Shown here one piece after another: positions 36,368-43,603 of a DNA stretch of 46,144 nt (positions are counted from its first letter, which is position 1; the number at the start of each line of letters is the position of its first letter). Origin of the DNA: Bacteroidales bacterium (GTDB lineage Bacteria > Bacteroidota > Bacteroidia > Bacteroidales > F082); the NCBI GenBank assembly GCA_017549605.1, contig JAFYUH010000187.1, positions 1 through 46,144 on the forward strand, given 5' to 3'. The notes under the pieces were generated by a model that worked only from the letters and a program-made list of their open reading frames with translations, searched no databases and was not told the DNA's origin. A program made the translations under genes and the position numbers.

Positions 36368-37024
36368 TCATACATTTTTTAAAATCTCTGGATGTAATTC
36401 TAAATACATATCGCGTAGTGGGATGCTTAAAATAAAGCATACATTCATTAAACTGAGATTATATGTTATGTCACGGCCGTTTTTATCTTTCACTTTATAT
36501 TCAGGTGAGTTGTAAATGAAATTTTTGATTCCATCGAACTTTTCGCTATTGCAGAAATTGACAAAAACTATAAGAGCTGAATTTTCAACATCCAATGCTG
36601 TCCTTGGTCGTTCTTCATCTAATCTTGAGATAAGTTGTTCTTTATTTTCGTTGATAAAATTGATACCATTTATTTCCTTTAAAATTTGATTGCCAAAATC
36701 AGTGAGTTTTGTAGGACTATTTTTTAACCCTACTAGATCTATATCCTCATTGTATTTTGTGGATAAAAATGATTTTATTGATGATACATCTCTTGTAAGA
36801 TTTTTGATGTTCATATCAACATCGGAGAATCTTTTGTCAACATCAGTGAAACGTTTGTCAATATCATCGAATTTTTTATCAATCTTTTCAAAGTATTTTT
36901 CATGCCTTTTAAGAGAAGCGTTTATGCTTTTTATACAATGTTTAATGCTATTAAACGTGATTTCATGTTGTCGTATGAGATCTTTGATTGATATGCAGTC
37001 GGCATGAGCAACCTTTTTTTTCAA
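36368..37024 (-). CDS. C-terminal part of a frameshifted coiled-coil membrane protein
   Basis: Read from TTG at 37024 this gives 218 residues. The first residues (KKKVAHADCISIKD) continue the 31-residue repeat of the upstream frame, so this is almost certainly the rest of the gene starting at 37433 and not an independent gene. A heptad-rich coiled coil follows (FEKIDKKFDDIDKRFTDVDKRF, VDMNIKNLTRDVSSIKSFL). The last 115 residues form an unrecognised globular domain (VGLKNSPTKLTDFGNQIL, RPRTALDVENSALIVFVNF, IPLRDMYLELHPEI). The two frames are offset by one base at an A8 tract (37014-37021). Confidence 0.65.
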   Translation of the reverse strand: MKKKVAHADCISIKDLIRQHEITFNSIKHCIKSINASLKRHEKYFEKIDKKFDDIDKRFTDVDKRFSDVDMNIKNLTRDVSSIKSFLSTKYNEDIDLVGLKNSPTKLTDFGNQILKEINGINFINENKEQLISRLDEERPRTALDVENSALIVFVNFCNSEKFDGIKNFIYNSPEYKVKDKNGRDITYNLSLMNVCFILSIPLRDMYLELHPEILKNV

Positions 37025-37433
37025 TTTGTTCTACGCGCTGAGGGAGACGTTCTTCTTTGATTTCCTTAATGATGTTATTGTTGATTTCACAGTCGGCATG
37101 AGCAACCTTCTTCTCAATTTGTTCTACGCGCTGAGGGAGACGTTCTTCTTTGATTTCCTTAATGATGTTATTGTTGATTTCACAGTCGGCATGAGCAACC
37201 TTCTTCTCAATTTGTTCTATTCGTTGAGGGAGACGTTCTTCTTTGATTTTCTCAATATTTTCTTTATGAACTTTACAGTCAGCATTAGAAGTCTTCTTCT
37301 CGATTTCTTCCATGCGATGAGAAACTTTACCTAAATTAAATGCTTTGTAAAGCATAAACCAAACTCCACCGAGAATTGTCGCAATGCTTCCGACAATAAT
37401 TCCTAACAACTCTATATTGTATTCCATATGCAT
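36963..37433 (-). CDS. N-terminal part of a frameshifted coiled-coil membrane protein with 31-residue repeats
   Basis: 156 residues as read. A transmembrane helix is near residues 8-32 (LLGIIVGSIATILGGVWFMLY), then a charged coiled coil with a 31-residue unit (IEQIEKKVAHADC, then EINNNIIKEIKEERLPQRV) repeated nearly perfectly. In the last unit an extra A in the coding-strand A8 tract turns the normal IEKKVAHAD into IEKKGCSCRLH and a stop. Removing one A would join it to the downstream frame for a protein of about 350 residues. The start is ATG 37433 or 37427. A TATCTTTG box lies right upstream, adjoining the transposon. Confidence 0.65.
   Translation of the reverse strand: MHMEYNIELLGIIVGSIATILGGVWFMLYKAFNLGKVSHRMEEIEKKTSNADCKVHKENIEKIKEERLPQRIEQIEKKVAHADCEINNNIIKEIKEERLPQRVEQIEKKVAHADCEINNNIIKEIKEERLPQRVEQIEKKGCSCRLHINQRSHTTT
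37022..37300. repeat. Three 93-bp tandem repeats in the coiled-coil gene
   Basis: Units start at 37022, 37115 and 37208, exactly 93 bp apart. The first two are essentially identical in DNA; the third has drifted. The sequence at 36990-37021 is the diverged edge copy that carries the T8/A8 tract. Confidence 0.93.
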
Positions 37434-37464
37434 TAAAGTTTCTGGTTAACGTTGCAAAGATATA

Positions 37465-37490
37465 GGTGACTTTATACGACAATACCCTAA
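37465..37490 (+). repeat. Left terminal inverted repeat (26 bp)
   Basis: Starts GGTGACTTTATACGAC and ends CCCTAA; exact reverse complement of 43570-43595. Preceded by the target duplication AAGATATA. Confidence 0.97.
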
Positions 37491-37592
37491 TTTTACATCA
37501 TACAATTAGTCACATATAGTTATACATTTATAATTTCTACAAAGAACTTTTTTTACCAAAGTTAATAATACCAATCAAATAGCGATTGGCTT

Positions 37593-38522
37593 ATGAAAGA
37601 AATTAACTTTGGACAATTTAACACGCTCTACGATTTCTGTTCGGCATTCCCAAACGAAAAGACATGTATTGATTACCTTGAAAAGTTATTATGGCCAAAT
37701 GGAGTCGTATCGCCATACGATAAAAACTCTAAAGTATATCGTAGAGGTGACGGATTGTATCGTTGTAAAAATACTGGTAAAAACTTCAATGTTCGTATAG
37801 GAACTATTTTTGAGAGTACAAAACTTCCTTTACGCAAATGGTTTCTTGCTATCTATTTCATTGGTAATTATAAGAAAGGAATATCGGCGACCCAGCTATC
37901 AAAAGATATTGACGTAACACTAAAAACCGCTTGGTTTCTTTTGCAAAAGGTTCGTAGAACATTCCACGATAATATACATAGTATTAAACTTCATGGTGAA
38001 GTTGAACTAGATGAGACTTTTGTTGGCGGGAAGAATAAGAATCGCCATGCTAACAAGAAAGTTAAGAATAGTCAAGGAAGAAGTTTTAAGGATAAGGTTC
38101 CTGTTATGGGCATGATGGAACGTAACGGAAATGTGGTTTGTAAGGTCGTTAAAGATACTTCTGTTAAATCCCTAACGGCACCTATATTAAGAACTGTAAA
38201 ATTATCTGCAACGCTTTATACTGATGAGTGGTGCGGTTATGATAAAGTTCGTAGATTCTATCATACAGAAATGGTTGACCACGGCAAAGGTATGTACGTG
38301 AACGGCAATGCTTATACTAATAGCATTGAGGGATTTTGGGGTAATTACTGCAAACGTCCAATCAATTGTACATACAATCACCTCAGCCGTAAATATATGC
38401 AAGGATACTTTGACGAGTTTTGTTTCCGCTATAACTTCCGCAAAGTTAGTAATTTGGAAAGGTTTAAGAAAATGATAACAAATGTTAAGATTCGTGTAAC
38501 CCAAATACAAATTGCTGCATGA
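37593..38522 (+). CDS. IS1595-family (ISXO2-like) transposase
   Basis: A 309-residue DDE transposase. The N-terminal part has a degenerate zinc-finger-like region (KVYRRGDGLYRCKNTGKNF), then FESTKLPLRKWFLAIYF typical of the family. The ISXO2 catalytic domain has ELDETFVGGKNKNRHANKK (first Asp), LYTDEWCGYDKV (second Asp) and YTNSIEGFWGNYCKR, where IS1595 members carry the HxxxN/E region. It starts 103 bp inside the left inverted repeat; a CCAATC/GATTGG hairpin (37571-37589) lies just before the ATG and may limit translation. Its stop overlaps the next ORF by 4 bp. Confidence 0.95.
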   Translation: MKEINFGQFNTLYDFCSAFPNEKTCIDYLEKLLWPNGVVSPYDKNSKVYRRGDGLYRCKNTGKNFNVRIGTIFESTKLPLRKWFLAIYFIGNYKKGISATQLSKDIDVTLKTAWFLLQKVRRTFHDNIHSIKLHGEVELDETFVGGKNKNRHANKKVKNSQGRSFKDKVPVMGMMERNGNVVCKVVKDTSVKSLTAPILRTVKLSATLYTDEWCGYDKVRRFYHTEMVDHGKGMYVNGNAYTNSIEGFWGNYCKRPINCTYNHLSRKYMQGYFDEFCFRYNFRKVSNLERFKKMITNVKIRVTQIQIAA

Positions 38523-38665
38523 TGAATGTAAAAAAGAAAGACAGAAACTATATACCAGTCCTTGATCAACCGATAGAAAAATTAAAAGAGATTGGTAAAC
38601 CAGTTAATTTTAACGCTTTAATGAAACAAGTCTTATCATATAAAATTATGAAAAAGAAAGAGTAA
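38519..38665 (+). CDS. 48-residue ORF coupled to the transposase
   Basis: ATG at 38519 overlaps the transposase TGA (ATGA). The peptide starts MMNVKKKDRNYIPVLDQP, continues with LKEIGKPVNFNALMKQVL and ends KKKE; it is very basic with no membrane segment. The overlap suggests coupled translation and a transposition-related role (accessory or DNA-binding), but no family is recognised. The stop TAA lies inside the following bidirectional terminator. Confidence 0.6.
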   Translation: MMNVKKKDRNYIPVLDQPIEKLKEIGKPVNFNALMKQVLSYKIMKKKE

Positions 38666-38682
38666 TCTCCAAAGATTACTCT
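38659..38682. terminator. Bidirectional terminator between the 48-residue ORF and the protease gene
   Basis: AGAGTAATCT (38659-38668), loop CCAA, AGATTACTCT (38673-38682). T-rich sequence follows on both strands (ATTTTCC on plus, TTCTTTTTC on minus). Stop codons of both convergent genes fall in or at its edge. Confidence 0.8.
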
Positions 38683-39241
38683 ATTTTCCACAACAATGTT
38701 TATACTTTTTACCACTGCCACAAGGACATAAGTTATTTCTCCCTACTTTTTTAGGTACAACAATAGGTTTAGATGAAGGTGTGTTTTCTATATAATCAAT
38801 TGTTTCAAGCGATGGTGCTCGAAATGAAAAGGTTGTTTTACCATTTACATTTGTAATAGAAAAATCTCCCTTACAAATAACATCCATACCTATTAAAACA
38901 TCAAGATTACCTAAATCACTACTTGTAACCATTAAAGACGGGAATCCGACACCACATGGTAACAAAATATTTATCAAATACATTTTTGTAGGTACAACTC
39001 CTGCTGCCGTATGATTTATTCCTTGTCCAACAGGTATTAAACCTAAATCATTTACCACCCTTTGAGATATAGATGATTTTGTTGCTCCTGTATCCCAAAG
39101 AGCTTTGTATTTTAAAACTTTTGGATGCTCTTTCCCTTTTTGTAATTCTTCAGCACTAATAGCTTCACTTACACCACATTCCAAATAAAGAGAATCGGCT
39201 AAAGTATCAAATTTGATAGTAAATGCGCGACTATTATTCAT
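38681..39241 (-). CDS. Retropepsin-like aspartyl protease with C-terminal SEC-C motif
   Basis: 186 residues. The aspartyl protease active site is [13 protein letters not shown] with D50-T51-G52, and VLIGMDVI near 114-121 is the second conserved strand of the pepsin-like clan AA fold; one such domain would act as a dimer. The C-terminus [18 protein letters not shown] is a SEC-C zinc motif (Cys172, 174, 183, 184), which usually targets proteins to nucleic acid or ribosome/SecA-type partners. The combination in one small protein is uncommon. It is coupled to the DUF5678-like gene by an 8-bp overlap, suggesting a pair. Confidence 0.85.
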
Positions 39242-39479
39242 AAACCATTCTAACTCTTGAAGTATATGTAGCTTCGTAACCTTTCTCGTTTTCTGTACAT
39301 TTTTGTATTAGAAAATTTCCTAATCCATATTTATCTTTTGAAGCAAAATAAGCTTGTTCTTCGTTATCATAATCTCCTACAACATTTTGATTAACAATAA
39401 CAAGGACTCTATTATTATACTTTTTAACCAATTCTTTTTGATTATCAATATAATATTTATACTCTTTATTTATGTCCAT
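39234..39479 (-). CDS. DUF5678-like small protein, partner of the protease
   Basis: About 81 residues from ATG 39479 (an upstream in-frame ATG at 39506 is less likely). The sequence [29 protein letters not shown], then [23 protein letters not shown], resembles the DUF5678 family, short proteins often found next to clan AA proteases. It overlaps the protease start by 8 bp. It may be a substrate, inhibitor or antitoxin-like partner; nothing in the sequence decides this. Confidence 0.65.
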
Positions 39480-39684
39480 CGTACAACTAATTATTATAAT
39501 CTGCAAATATATATACTTTTATTCAATCTAACAAATATAATGTTTATATTTAACAAGTTATTACATTAAATGAATGTTTTCTAAATTTTATTTTGTGTTA
39601 TATGTTTTTATAATAATTGTAGATCATCTAAAAAAATAGTGAGAGCTATCCGTGAAGACGTTCTCATTACTTTTTTAATAATTT

Positions 39685-39879
39685 TTAGTTATTCTTTTTA
39701 TCTTTGTTTTTACGTTCTATTTCTTTAGAACGAAGAAATGCTATAAAAGGTGTAAAAACTATTGCAAAACCAACATAATACAATATAGGCAACTTTATTC
39801 CTTGTAAGTCTGTAACAACATATATTCCTAATGTGCTTATTATCGCCCAAATAAATCCGTATAATAAATATTTACTCAT
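39685..39879 (-). CDS. Small membrane protein (64 residues)
   Basis: Two transmembrane segments (LLYGFIWAIISTLGIYVV and ILYYVGFAIVFTPFIAFL) and a lysine-rich tail RSKEIERKNKDKKNN. No family recognised. It follows the next membrane protein gene by 8 bp on the minus strand, so the two are probably co-transcribed. Confidence 0.6.
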   Translation of the reverse strand: MSKYLLYGFIWAIISTLGIYVVTDLQGIKLPILYYVGFAIVFTPFIAFLRSKEIERKNKDKKNN

Positions 39880-39887
39880 AACTATTC

Positions 39888-40244
39888 TTATAAACTAAAG
39901 TGAAAATCCCAAAACATTTGATTGTAACGAGCGTTAGCCATTTCATAACCATACCATATCTGAAGTGCAAAAACAATCAAACCTATGACAAGAATGACCC
40001 AACCTAATACATCATTCTCTACAACTTCTTCATCAGGACGATTAGTTATAGGATGTGCAATAACTTCTTTCTTGAGATGTCCAGAAACAGCTAATATCAG
40101 AATACCAAATAATCCAATAAACCAACAATTGATAAACCATAACCAATCCTTTCGGTTTCGCTTCTTTGCCATACTACAACCTGCTATGGCAAATAGAATC
40201 GGAAATATAATTCCAATCAAAAACGTAATTAAACTTGTATTCAT
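39888..40244 (-). CDS. Membrane protein (about 118 residues)
   Basis: From ATG 40244: MNTSLITFLIGIIFPILFAI, then CSMAKKRNRKDWLWFINCW, a second helix FIGLFGILILAVSGHL, and a third VLGWVILVIGLIVFALQIWY. The CysxMxKKxxR...WxWFINCWFxG layout is typical of small superinfection or phospholipase-D-nuclease-like N-terminal membrane modules, but the match is weak. The roughly 150-nt self-complementary segment at 40311-40463 would be its 5' leader. Confidence 0.65.
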   Translation of the reverse strand: MNTSLITFLIGIIFPILFAIAGCSMAKKRNRKDWLWFINCWFIGLFGILILAVSGHLKKEVIAHPITNRPDEEVVENDVLGWVILVIGLIVFALQIWYGYEMANARYNQMFWDFHFSL

Positions 40245-40785
40245 AATGGCGAATTTTACAGGTTTCTCCGTAGGCAGACAATGGGAGAAGTTTAACAATG
40301 TTTATTAAAAAGAAAGTGGACTGCCGTCCTGCCACCTTGTAGGTATCGCCAAACACCTGAATACACGCACGGACAAGCAGTCCACGTATATTCAAGTGAA
40401 CTACTCCGTACCCCGTGTATTCTTTGTTTAATTTGGCGATTTCACAAGAAAGAGGCACTTTCTATATTATTTCAAACTTTGTCCCGAAAGACAATGCAAA
40501 TATAAAAAGAAAATGTACAACTCTACTTCTATAAGCAAAATTATATATTTTAAAGAACAGCTATTAGTAATTATTAAATTTATTTGTAAAAAATAGGACG
40601 AAATTAGCTTGCCTTGCCTTATTTTTTTACGAGGAAATTTATAGTTAATTTTATGGTTTAGAAAGTAATAAGTATGATGGTTTGCTTTAAAGTGAAATAA
40701 ATAGTGGAGATGATAGTTGTTTTTGAAAAATAAATATTATTTTTGCAAGACTAAAGTGGTTTTTAGAGTAAGATGTGATAGATGT
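40245..40785. other. 541-bp gap inside the transposon
   Basis: Apart from the candidate RNA at 40311-40463 I see no gene. 40265-40293 contains TTTCTCC...GGGAGAAG, a small extra hairpin between the RNA and the membrane protein start. 40470-40785 is AT-rich with no feature that I can support. Confidence 0.55.
40311..40463 (-). ncRNA. Candidate structured RNA or leader element
   Basis: Nested perfect stems are visible: 40311-40318 with 40456-40463 (8 bp), 40336-40340 plus 40345-40352 with 40444-40448 plus 40433-40440 (5 + 8 bp), 40359-40367 with 40414-40422 (9 bp) and 40369-40373 with 40405-40409 (5 bp). In addition 40316-40324 pairs perfectly with 40377-40385 (9 bp) plus GTCC/GGAC (40326-40329, 40371-40374), which would be a pseudoknot or an alternative fold. 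On the minus strand the outer arm runs into CTTTTTAATAA, and the next gene starts at 40244. The segment is more GC-rich than its surroundings. An open frame also crosses it on the minus strand but shows no protein family. Confidence 0.5.
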
Positions 40786-41268
40786 ATGGAATTAGGTTTA
40801 ATAAGTAAATGCTTGAATTGGGTTAGTAACAAAATGAGCAAAATAAAGTACACAATAAAGAATATTGTATATATATTATTGTGGGCTATAGTTTCTTTGG
40901 TTTCTTCGTTCAATCAAATAATTCCATCTATTAAGGATTTATGTAAGGGTGATTTTTCTTGTATAATTGATGGAGATTTTTATACAGAAGTTATTGCCCC
41001 ATTATTGATTTGGATTATAGCATTCTTTATAGATTATTTATACCAATTGTGGACTATTGGAAATAATGAAAGAATGAATGAGTTTTGGGTTAAATTGTCA
41101 AATTTTGTGATTTGCATGGTATTTGTGGTATTGGTGATTAGTTTCTTCAATCACAGCACTGTTATGCAACAAACAATAAGTGTTATATGTTTGTTTGTAA
41201 GTATGATATTATTGAAAATATCAGCTTTGTATGTTGTTAGTCCTTCTTATGAGGTGGAAAAAAGATAG
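40786..41268 (+). CDS. Membrane protein of unknown function (about 160 residues)
   Basis: Four transmembrane helices: IVYILLWAIVSLVSSF, VIAPLLIWIIAFFIDYLY, FVICMVFVVLVISFF and ISVICLFVSMILLKISALYVV, with a loop containing IIPSIKDLCKGDFSCIIDGDFYT. No family recognised. I chose ATG 40786; ATG 40834 is also possible and the in-frame TTG at 40717 less likely. It is 8 bp before the next gene, suggesting an operon. Confidence 0.65.
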   Translation: MELGLISKCLNWVSNKMSKIKYTIKNIVYILLWAIVSLVSSFNQIIPSIKDLCKGDFSCIIDGDFYTEVIAPLLIWIIAFFIDYLYQLWTIGNNERMNEFWVKLSNFVICMVFVVLVISFFNHSTVMQQTISVICLFVSMILLKISALYVVSPSYEVEKR

Positions 41269-41276
41269 GAATAGAA

Positions 41277-41963
41277 ATGGGATTTATGAATATAATTATC
41301 ATTACATTGGCTGTTTGTGCCTATATAGCTTTAAGGATTGTTGCAAAAAAAATGACAGTAAAACGTAAAATCGTATATGCCGGGCATCCTTCTTCTGGTG
41401 ATATCCCTAATATTGATATATCACCACTCCCTCAAAATGACCCCAAATATACGATAGGGAATGATGTCGTAAATATGTATGGATTAGAACAAATGGTGGT
41501 TAAAGGGAAATCTCTTGAACATTTTGGTATTAAAGATGGTGCAATTGTGTTTGTACGTAAACTCAATCCAGATGAAGAGTTGAATAAATTGATTGGACGA
41601 TTTATTGTTTTTAAGATAGACAACGAGCGTACTCTTCGGGAATATCCATTAAAGAATATAATCGTTGCAGAAGATGGACTTAAATTAAGAAAAGTCGTAA
41701 AACTCCTATCTATAGAAGAGGCAAATGTCGAATCACAAATAAAGAATTTTTTATTGGAGAATGATAATGAATTTGTAAAAAAGACTGATGAAGAAAGAGA
41801 AAAAGAATATGAAAGATATATAAAGAAATATAGATTCGCTTCAGATTATTATAAAAATACCACAATAATTATGTCTATTACTTATAGGAATGGTTTGTGT
41901 AAAGATTATTCATTCCATTCTCCAGAGTGGTTGTATGGTGTGGTAGAATATAATACTAAATAA
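41277..41963 (+). CDS. Membrane-anchored protein with S24/S26-like fold
   Basis: 228 residues. One N-terminal transmembrane helix (IIIITLAVCAYIALRIV) is followed by a soluble domain. VVKGKSLEHFGIKDGAIVFVRKL resembles the LexA/signal-peptidase fold segment (GxSM...xxGDxVxVxK), with Ser79 at the catalytic position. I cannot place the catalytic Lys securely, so activity is doubtful. The last 80 residues are charged and unassigned. The paired membrane gene before it may be its partner. Confidence 0.55.
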   Translation: MGFMNIIIITLAVCAYIALRIVAKKMTVKRKIVYAGHPSSGDIPNIDISPLPQNDPKYTIGNDVVNMYGLEQMVVKGKSLEHFGIKDGAIVFVRKLNPDEELNKLIGRFIVFKIDNERTLREYPLKNIIVAEDGLKLRKVVKLLSIEEANVESQIKNFLLENDNEFVKKTDEEREKEYERYIKKYRFASDYYKNTTIIMSITYRNGLCKDYSFHSPEWLYGVVEYNTK

Positions 41964-42113
41964 AACATATAATGTAATAGATGGTTGTCTTTTCTTAGTT
42001 CTTGATATATTTTGTGATATACATATTGTATGTGTTATTTAAGATGATTGGTAATTAAGCAGAAATGACATATACAACTTTTGTTTAAGGTTGTTACATT
42101 AATAGTTAGTATA

Positions 42114-42527
42114 CTAAAGACTTTTAATCCACTTTTTAAAATATTCTTGAAACTCTTTACGATTTTTAAATTTACTTTCAGCAAACTTAACACCCGCAAT
42201 TTCAGCAAATCTTTGTATGGTATAAAGCTCCTTGAACTCAAACAACGAATCAATTTCCTTGTCGGTAAAAATTCTATTTTCGGTTTTCATACTTTTACCG
42301 ACAACCTCATTTATATGCTTTAGAATTTTTACGGACGCTGATTTTTCGGCACTCTCGCCATTGATTTCTTTTTCTTCAATAAGACGTATTGGCATAGGAG
42401 CGTCTACTGATACGAATGCTTCTCTGAATTTAGTTCTGTAATCCTTTTCGTATGTTATATCTACGTTATAACCGCCATCCTTTTCTTCACATGTTATTGT
42501 TAGTCTTGTATTATTCATGATTTTCAT
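42114..42527 (-). CDS. Hypothetical protein
   Basis: About 137 residues from ATG 42527 (ATG 42518 also possible). No membrane segment. The N-terminal half (MNNTRLTITCEEKDGGYNVDITYEKDY in part) looks like a small beta domain, and the C-terminal half is helical with FTDKEIDSLFEFKELYTIQRFAEI and FQEYFKKWIK. No family recognised. It is alone on the minus strand, converging with the S24-like gene. Confidence 0.55.
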   Translation of the reverse strand: MKIMNNTRLTITCEEKDGGYNVDITYEKDYRTKFREAFVSVDAPMPIRLIEEKEINGESAEKSASVKILKHINEVVGKSMKTENRIFTDKEIDSLFEFKELYTIQRFAEIAGVKFAESKFKNRKEFQEYFKKWIKSL

Positions 42528-42772
42528 TAGTTTATATTTATAATTCAACTAGAATATTAACTTTGTCAGTCTGAATTAACATTTTATTGTCAAAATGACA
42601 GATTTAAGGTTTGGTGCATAGTTTGCTAATAAAGTAGTAGTGCCATTGGCATCCGTTATGCTGAAAGTCCTTTGGATATGACGGCAGTTTTCAACCAATC
42701 TTCCTGCAATTAAGATGGCGGAGTTCCTTCCGTATAAAAGGATTTAAATAATGTATAATTAAATATTTTTTT

Positions 42773-43024
42773 ATGGCAAAAAGAGATACTTATAAGTATG
42801 AACTTACCAAAGGAAATAAAGTGGTGTATGTTGGAATAACCAATAACCCAGAAAGAAGGGAAAAAGAACACCATCAAGATAAAGATTTCGACAAAATGAA
42901 AATAGTTGGAAATATCTCTACTCTTGATGGTGCTTCTAAGTGGGAGTCAGATAGGATAAAAACCTATATGAATAACCACAATGGCAACACTCCATTATAT
43001 AACCAAAATGAACATGGTAAATAA
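42773..43024 (+). CDS. Small GIY-YIG-like protein
   Basis: 83 residues. KYELTKGNKVVYVGITNNPERREKEHH matches the start of a GIY-YIG nuclease domain (the YEL...VVYVGIT strand pair and Arg in PERREKEH). The family's later Glu could be in KWESDRIK. At 83 residues this is a minimal domain. It may nick or bind DNA. The 200 bp upstream has no gene; it includes CCGTTATGC...GACGG and other small inverted words. Confidence 0.65.
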   Translation: MAKRDTYKYELTKGNKVVYVGITNNPERREKEHHQDKDFDKMKIVGNISTLDGASKWESDRIKTYMNNHNGNTPLYNQNEHGK

Positions 43025-43086
43025 TAGAATCTGATAAACTTCCTAACTCTAACCTTATGCAGCAAGGTTATGAGTACTCTTCAATA

Positions 43087-43119
43087 CACCGTCAGTTTGG
43101 CACTCTGGCGGTGGTTTTT
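43087..43119 (+). terminator. Terminator-like hairpin before the KTSC gene
   Basis: CACCGTCAG (43087-43095) pairs with CTGGCGGTG (43105-43113) with one G-T pair, then GTTTTTG. A second hairpin AACCTT/AAGGTT lies at 43051-43069. Confidence 0.65.
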
Positions 43120-43168
43120 GTTTATTATTGTACAACGACAACTTGAAATATGTTGCCATTAAAGCAGA

Positions 43169-43176
43169 AAGGAGGT
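43169..43176 (+). promoter_or_regulatory. Strong Shine-Dalgarno sequence of the KTSC gene
   Basis: AAGGAGGT ends 4 bp before the ATG at 43181. Bacteroidota genes rarely use such strong sites, and no other gene start in this window shows one. Confidence 0.8.
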
Positions 43177-43180
43177 AATT

Positions 43181-43396
43181 ATGATTCCTTACGCAAATGT
43201 GAGAGGTAACTCTCCTGTTATTGGCTATGAGATTGAACCTTATAGAATAATCGTTTGGTTCAAAGGCAGCAAACCATATTCTTATAGTTATAACAGAGCA
43301 GGAGTAAGAAACGTTGAAGAAATGAAACGTCTTGCACAACGTGGAGCGGGATTAAGCGCATTCATTACACGCAACGTTCGATATCTTTACGATTAA
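43181..43396 (+). CDS. KTSC domain protein
   Basis: 71 residues. VIGYEIEPYRIIVWFKGSKPYSYSYNRAG and GAGLSAFITRNVRYLYD match the KTSC fold, in which a beta sheet precedes a final NxRxxY. KTSC domains are found alone or fused to nucleases and other proteins; their function is unknown. It has a strong ribosome-binding site and its own terminator, and is the last gene before the right end of the transposon. Confidence 0.75.
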   Translation: MIPYANVRGNSPVIGYEIEPYRIIVWFKGSKPYSYSYNRAGVRNVEEMKRLAQRGAGLSAFITRNVRYLYD

Positions 43397-43409
43397 CACC
43401 TTTCGTACT

Positions 43410-43440
43410 AGTCCTATGAGTTAATTCATAGGACTTTTTA
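43410..43440 (+). terminator. Rho-independent terminator of the KTSC gene
   Basis: AGTCCTATGA (43410-43419), loop GTTAAT, TCATAGGACT (43426-43435), then a T run. Confidence 0.93.
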
Positions 43441-43569
43441 TTTATAACTTTGTTAATTAAATAGGTTAAATTATCTTTATTATTCAAGTTAACAAAATCT
43501 CTGCAAATATAACATATATTTAAGTCCAAAGTTAAACAATAAACAAACAAATATTATGGCAATATCTTT

Positions 43570-43595
43570 TTAGGGTATTGTCGTATAAAGTCACC
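43570..43595 (-). repeat. Right terminal inverted repeat (26 bp)
   Basis: On the minus strand it starts GGTGACTTTATACGAC; exact reverse complement of 37465-37490. Followed by the target duplication AAGATATA (43596-43603). The part 43441-43569 is AT-rich with nothing else I can support. Confidence 0.97.
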
Positions 43596-43603
43596 AAGAT
43601 ATA

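What the first reader, a model, noticed from the sequence alone, without database searches (positions are those of the whole stretch)
37457..43603. Intact 6.1-kb IS1595-family transposon carrying about ten passenger genes
The 26-bp inverted ends (37465-37490, 43570-43595) are perfect, and both sides carry AAGATATA, the 8-bp duplication expected for IS1595-family transposases. Between them lie a transposase and an unusual passenger set: retropepsin with SEC-C tail, DUF5678-like partner, small membrane proteins, an S24/S26-like anchored protein, GIY-YIG-like and KTSC proteins, and a candidate RNA. IS1595 elements with passenger genes are known, but I do not recognise this cargo. Protease, membrane and nuclease-like modules together hint at a defence, toxin or signalling role.
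Basis: partly seen in the sequence, partly recalled or inferred. Interest (0 to 1): 0.88.

Follow-up and report, generated by a model that had tools for sequence, protein, structure and literature searches.

The report
Cargo transposon with portable leader RNA
A Bacteroidales bacterium carries an intact jumping element with nine or ten small accessory genes, two of which sit behind a switch-like RNA leader that also turns up in phages and in other accessory genes of the same bacterial order.

Summary
The transposon is real: window 37465-43595 has perfect 26-bp inverted ends, an 8-bp AAGATATA duplication and an open IS1595 transposase frame, and two relatives keep the empty site. Its transposase lies in a supported 14-member clade. 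Thirteen of 21 transposase loci examined have both ends with an exact 8-bp duplication. Cargo differs between copies, some families recur, and at least one block has moved between elements. This is a new lineage of a known kind, the IS1595 "tIS" such as tISCpe8 and MTnSag1.

The unexpected part is the "candidate RNA": a ~155-nt leader (40306-40463, minus) present in 10 of 10 complete elements of the clade. Two mutually exclusive folds both carry compensatory changes. It also occurs without IS1595: 18 of 60 genomes (own included), a Bacteroides phage, IMG/VR contigs. It precedes unrelated genes: 34 of 39 copies against 201 of 780 random stretches. No Rfam match was found. I read it as a portable promoter-plus-attenuator; no RNA was measured and the signal is unknown. 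A joint defence role of the cargo is not supported.

The parts
37457..37464 (.). left copy of the 8-bp target duplication AAGATATA
   Evidence: empty site
37465..37490 (+). left terminal inverted repeat, 26 bp
37593..38522 (+). IS1595-family transposase, 309 aa
   Evidence: PF12762 1.3e-39; NF033547 3e-55
38519..38665 (+). small basic ORF (48 aa) overlapping the transposase stop by 4 nt; a comparable ORF in 12 of 14 clade members (not L018, L020)
   Evidence: partial clustering
38681..39241 (-). retropepsin-like aspartic protease with SEC-C tail, 186 aa
39234..39479 (-). DUF5678-like partner, 81 aa, overlapping the protease start
   Evidence: PF18929 0.0045, below cut-off; paired in 5 of 13 related loci
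39685..39879 (-). 64-aa predicted membrane protein, second gene behind the RNA leader
   Evidence: also in L012
39888..40244 (-). 118-aa predicted membrane protein, first gene behind the RNA leader; family in four elements
40306..40463 (-). structured leader RNA (two alternative folds)
40497..40504 (-). TAnnTTTG box (Bacteroides -7 motif, recalled) 42 nt before the RNA model start
   Evidence: sequence
40786..41268 (+). 160-aa predicted membrane protein
   Evidence: ORF
41277..41963 (+). 228-aa protein with a weak S24-like stretch
   Evidence: PF00717 8.8e-4, below cut-off
42114..42527 (-). 137-aa protein of a family shared with L013, L015, L016
42773..43024 (+). 83-aa GIY-YIG-like protein (partial domain)
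   Evidence: PF01541 1.1e-5
43181..43396 (+). 71-aa KTSC-like protein; 82% identical copy in the IS1595 contig MT839549.1
43570..43595 (-). right terminal inverted repeat, 26 bp
43596..43603 (.). right copy of the 8-bp target duplication

Best explanation
The stretch is an intact IS1595-family transposon of the tIS type. Shown by sequence: one transposase between perfect 26-bp ends inserted between two host genes and duplicated 8 bp, in a clade of related elements that carry differing sets of small accessory genes. Inferred: the transposase (perhaps helped by the coupled small basic protein) moves the whole unit. Two cargo genes (118-aa and 64-aa membrane proteins) are read from a TAnnTTTG-type promoter through a ~155-nt leader RNA. 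Shown by comparison: the leader has two mutually exclusive, covarying folds, and it is a portable unit found before unrelated genes in transposons, phages and chromosomal accessory loci. Inferred: the early fold (a:a') forms first; the RNA then either refolds into a long rod, leaving the 3' strand free (read-through), or pairs its 3' strand (f:f') in a terminator-like stem (stop). So it works as an attenuator that keeps newly arrived cargo under control. The signal is unknown.
For: Transposon; empty sites; kin. Cargo shuffling: L012 shares 944 bp (91%) and 98 bp of right end (94%) with this element although their transposases are only 68-70% alike in DNA pieces. RNA: rod fold 95.9% of cells paired, 8 pairs changed on both sides; terminator-state fold 100% paired, 6 pairs (sliding controls 28-54% paired). 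Leader position: 34 of 39 copies followed by a same-strand ORF of at least 80 aa within 130 nt, against 201 of 780 random intergenic stretches and 2 of 39 on the opposite side. TAnnTTTG box upstream in 11 of 11 element copies and in L061-L064. Portability: L010 and L061/L062 are 91-92% alike from promoter to start codon and the genes behind differ. Nascent columns 1-100 fold a:a' in 11 of 11 (read by eye).
Against: No expression, termination or transposition was measured. Helix f has no two-sided change among the 11 element copies (only one-sided); its wider covariation I judged by eye. A T-run of 5 or more after f' is present in only 3 of 11 element copies and 3 of 9 virus copies, against 22 of 24 others (4 of 28 dropped there, core not found). 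a:a' alone passes a shuffle test in only 5 of 11, 5 of 9 and 12 of 24. The rod is the energy minimum in 9 of 11; in L025 the terminator state is lower. RNA presence does not cluster significantly on the transposase tree (94 of 500 shuffles as low). L020 shows no RNA in about 10 kb downstream of its transposase, its right end was not found. The TAnnTTTG box was seen in only 1 of the 26 remaining copies.
Confidence: 0.55

Rival explanations
1. The RNA is a stand-alone small RNA with its own promoter and terminator, and the gene behind it is a neighbour only.
For: U-rich 3' end after stem f in most non-element copies (22 of 24); no Rfam leader class matches.
Against: A same-strand ORF follows in 34 of 39 copies against 26% of random stretches; homology runs through to the start codon in L010 against L061/L062.
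Confidence: 0.2
2. The leader is a processive antitermination or RNA-stabilising element (working like the put or EAR RNAs, recalled) and not a stop/go attenuator.
For: Compact, largely pseudoknot-compatible fold, found before many unrelated genes, which suits a general expression aid; weak U-run in element copies.
Against: Mutually exclusive covarying helices (a' with a or e'; d' with d or f') suit a switch.
Confidence: 0.2
3. The conserved stretch acts as DNA, a folded recombination or cargo-capture site (attC-like), and the RNA-like pattern reflects hairpin DNA.
For: Cargo around it changes between elements and homology ends sharply at its edge.
Against: One copy per element, fixed orientation to the gene behind, a promoter box in front; G-U pairs are among the kept pair types, which suits RNA.
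Confidence: 0.05
4. The cargo is one defence or toxin system whose parts act together.
For: Protease, membrane and nuclease-like parts side by side; some other copies of the leader lie near toxin, restriction or helicase genes.
Against: Sister elements share only parts of the set; cargo genes point both ways; PADLOC hits partial and weak. The neighbour genes were picked by eye.
Confidence: 0.1

Closest known systems
tISCpe8 and MTnSag1 (IS1595-family elements with passengers)
   Same: IS1595-family transposase, ~25-bp inverted ends, 8-bp duplication, passenger genes (PMC5704250, passages seen).
   Different: Those are described as mobilizable; tISCpe8 is a lincomycin resistance element (title). 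Here I found no resistance, relaxase or mobilization hit in the proteins scanned; the clade is Bacteroidales, mostly with a leader RNA and a small basic ORF after the transposase.
IS1595 family as defined by Siguier et al. 2009 (title and citation seen only)
   Same: Transposase domain, ends, 8-bp duplication.
   Different: About 1 kb and one ORF in the plant-pathogen genomes of PMC11092175 (passage), against 3-8 kb here.
Attenuator leaders and riboswitches (general; e.g. T-box, abstract seen)
   Same: Two mutually exclusive folds upstream of a gene, one ending in a U-rich stem.
   Different: No ligand, no shared gene function downstream, found in transposons and phages; no Rfam 15 match.
Known Bacteroidetes RNA motifs (Bacteroidales-1, Bacteroides-1, Bacteroid-trp, Flavo-1; table in PMC2864571, passages)
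   Same: Structured RNAs of the same bacterial groups.
   Different: Those with Rfam models did not match; Bacteroides-2 and GUCCY-hairpin have no Rfam number in that table and were not compared.

Membership tests
IS1595 family | ISXO2-like transposase domain | tested here: met
   PF12762 1-153/153, 1.3e-39; NF033547
IS1595 family | terminal inverted repeats of about 25 bp | tested here: met
   26 of 26
IS1595 family | 8-bp target duplication | tested here: met
   AAGATATA both sides; single copy at empty sites; exact in 13 of 21 loci examined
tIS (IS with passenger genes) | passenger genes unrelated to transposition inside the same two ends | tested here: met
tIS (IS with passenger genes) | transposes as one unit, circular intermediate | not testable with these tools
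   sequence alone
Mobilizable IS1595 element (MTnSag1-like) | mobilization functions | tested here: not met
   no relaxase or mobilization family among proteins scanned; an oriT alone was not searched for
Rfam RNA families | match to a curated model | tested here: not met
   no match over the RNA in the window or in 10 further loci
Transcription attenuator | two mutually exclusive helices, both conserved | tested here: met
   helix f only by one-sided changes in the 11 copies
Transcription attenuator | stem followed by a U-run | tested here: inconclusive
   T-run of 5 or more: 3 of 11 element, 3 of 9 virus, 22 of 24 other copies
Transcription attenuator | regulated termination, known signal | not testable with these tools
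   needs RNA work
Known defence system | full-length match to a PADLOC model | tested here: not met
   only partial or weak matches (transposase, 48-aa and 64-aa ORFs not given)

The most novel reading that the evidence does not exclude
A portable promoter-plus-switch RNA, so far not in Rfam, is shared by Bacteroidales transposons, phages and accessory (restriction, toxin, helicase) loci: a common regulatory plug that lets newly acquired genes be held silent or released by one cell-wide signal. The transposon clade carries one copy per complete element, so mobile elements would spread gene and switch together.
Probability: 0.4. Interest if true: 0.85.

Novelty: new variant of a known kind. Interest (0 to 1): 0.62.

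Why it matters
The transposon itself adds a Bacteroidales lineage of IS1595 cargo elements in which cargo exchange can be followed with exact ends. If the RNA reading holds, an RNA class used across unrelated mobile elements of a major gut order has been missing from the main RNA library, and the way such bacteria control horizontally acquired genes becomes testable with simple reporters.

Tried and rejected
Rejected: assembly artefact (empty sites, perfect ends, kin with their own duplications). Rejected: RNA as a transposon-only part (28 fetched loci with RNA have no IS1595 transposase; no element end in 10 loci tested). Rejected: the S24-like protein as kin of an L028 protein (28% identity, gappy). 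Rejected: DNA-level presence on plasmids (no match). Two cargo proteins of L010 gave no phage hit, so a general phage origin of the cargo is not shown; the KTSC-like one did hit. The guess that one L065 neighbour is a RelE toxin found no Pfam support. Circular form of the fecal contigs L137 and L138: no terminal overlap. Structure predictions: tickets never finished, so no fold evidence. Literature: listings; I saw titles and abstract starts only, plus passages of PMC5704250, PMC7986276, PMC11092175 and PMC2864571. In these searches I saw no description of this clade or RNA; subscription papers are mostly not held.
Full report
1. The observation. The two ends are complementary at 26 of 26 positions and both are followed by AAGATATA. 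In the host genome, a 2.53-Mb assembly of 205 contigs (about 85% complete), the ends occur only here and the transposase only once. The window is contig 184.

2. Empty site. I joined the two flanks with one copy of the duplication and compared them with ten same-genus loci that hold the right-hand neighbour gene. Two, L097 and L098, align through the junction (69% and 72%); eight do not. The duplication overlaps a TAnnTTTG-like box upstream of the left-hand gene (sequence; motif recalled).

3. Kin. The end pattern (up to 3 mismatches) is in 4 of 173 genomes of the family, the own one included. Two of these hold complete elements of 8,097 and 5,480 bp with their own duplications AAACTATA and ATTTGTAA (L010, L011); the third (L012) is a relic with one end and a broken transposase. 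Of 21 transposase loci examined (window, L010-L020 without gaps, L023-L025, L027-L030, L137, L138), 13 show both ends with an exact 8-bp duplication; several of the others are cut by contig ends. The search demanded at most one mismatch in the duplication; the one in L029 (TAAAAAAA) is of low complexity. The tree gives a 14-member clade (100/99) with the window sister to L013 (98/96). The transposase is rare: 3 of 119 relatives at E <= 1e-70. On plasmids, 428 records match, all under 60% identity.

4. Cargo. Nine passenger ORFs lie in the window element besides the transposase and a 48-aa basic ORF. A comparable ORF overlaps or abuts the transposase end in 12 of 14 clade members (not all cluster by sequence). 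Cargo families recur: the 118-aa membrane protein in 4 elements, the 137-aa protein in 4, two further small families in 4 each. Others are private to the window element: retropepsin, DUF5678-like, 160-aa, GIY-YIG-like, and KTSC-like proteins, though L137, not in that comparison, has an 82% identical KTSC-like protein. Other elements carry Bro-N, P63C with PemK, KilA-N and DUF2971 proteins, and two long ORFs with an Mtd_N tail-fibre domain. L012 shares 944 bp at 91% with the window element but transposase DNA at only 68-70%, so blocks move between elements.

5. Retropepsin pair. Relatives are in 8 of 119 genomes (own included) and in viral contigs (most of the 54 viral hits match only the SEC-C tail). 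Of 13 loci looked at, 5 have a DUF5678-like gene upstream; 6 others have a different ORF of about 60 aa, seen by eye. So this pair is a module with a life outside the transposon.

6. The RNA. The minus-strand stretch 40306-40463 folds far better than shuffles (z -5.9). Copies are in 10 of 10 complete elements of the clade (window, L010, L011, L013, L015, L016, L019, L023, L025, L027), in the relic L012 and in L137, whose transposase is outside the clade. None was found in L014, L017, L018, L020, L024 (all cut by contig ends on one side) or in L028, L029, L030, L138.

7. Two folds. Rod fold: 95.9% of cells paired, 8 pairs changed on both sides; 0 of 500 shuffles reach it on four of five measures, 55 of 500 on the fifth. 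Terminator-state fold: 100% paired, 6 pairs changed on both sides (1 of 500), 251 of 500 on further pair types. Sliding the partners drops pairing to 28-54%. The helices exclude each other: a' pairs with a or e', d' with d or f', and g overlaps the core helix. Helix f varies on one side only in this set. In energy terms the rod is the minimum in 9 of 11 copies; the terminator state lies 1.7-12.7 kcal/mol above it in 10 and below it in L025; the first 100 columns fold a:a' in all 11, read by eye.

8. Beyond the transposon. Model R1 hits 18 of 60 genomes (own included; 30 places). I fetched the 29 other places as 28 loci: no IS1595 transposase in any. Model R2 hits 2 of 149 genomes drawn across the class, both of the window's order, under stricter filters. 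A core pattern hits 11 IMG/VR contigs, one of them that of L027; R1 confirms all 11. Bacteroides phage BS-TP1 holds a copy 33 nt before gp102. The phage search gave one record; plasmids none.

9. It is a leader. 34 of 39 copies (11 of 11 element, 23 of 28 other) have a same-strand ORF of at least 80 aa within 130 nt, against 201 of 780 random intergenic stretches of the same loci, and 2 of 39 on the opposite side. All 11 element copies and L061-L064 have a TAnnTTTG box about 15 or 43 nt upstream; of the 26 remaining copies only one does. Genes behind it are unrelated: membrane and secreted proteins, a PLD-SNF2 helicase (two scanned, PADLOC HKD+Snf2 1e-45 and 3e-39), an MCP, a DUF4352 protein, HSDR_N, and, second in line, a GmrSD_N protein. 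Ten neighbours were picked by eye as toxin-, defence- or integrase-like; nine matched (Zeta, nucleotidyltransferase, HicA, integrase, RhuM, YhcG, M78, HSDR_N, GmrSD_N), one did not. This is no test of enrichment.

10. Portability. L010 and L061/L062 are 91-92% alike over about 215 bp from promoter to start codon, and then carry different genes. L063 shares leader and gene with L010 at 87% without element ends.

11. Reading. The transposon is a tIS of the IS1595 family. The leader is most likely an attenuator that travels with its promoter; the stop state rests on a U-rich end that is strong in chromosomal copies and weak in element and virus copies. What it senses is open.

12. Novelty. For the transposon: new lineage of a known kind. 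For the RNA: no Rfam 15 match in the window and 10 further loci, and no description seen in searches, which cover open-licence papers only; two older Bacteroidetes motifs without Rfam number were not compared.

Noticed in passing
window 36963-37433 and 36368-37024: The left-hand neighbour gene holds 93-nt tandem repeats and two overlapping frames at a run of T, which suggests a frameshift or slippage site; not examined further.
   Followed up: no
L010 6004-8823 and L020 1793-5293: Long ORFs with an Mtd_N (major tropism determinant) domain, the first inside a complete transposon: a phage tail-fibre-like gene as transposon cargo.
   Followed up: partly
L028-L030: In a second transposase group the ORF coupled to, or near, the transposase is a phage-type Bro-N, P63C or KilA-N protein.
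   Followed up: no
L131, L134, L133: On viral contigs the leader RNA follows amidase- and lysis-like ORFs (read by eye) and precedes an HSDR_N gene (L133 scanned), as phage cargo genes often lie.
   Followed up: partly
L072 3005-3067: Fluoride riboswitch (RF01734, 60 bits) about 2 kb from a leader RNA copy.
   Followed up: no
L133 4174-4282: RT-17 RNA (RF03020, 43.6 bits against a cut-off of 40.4) on the same viral contig as a leader RNA copy.
   Followed up: no
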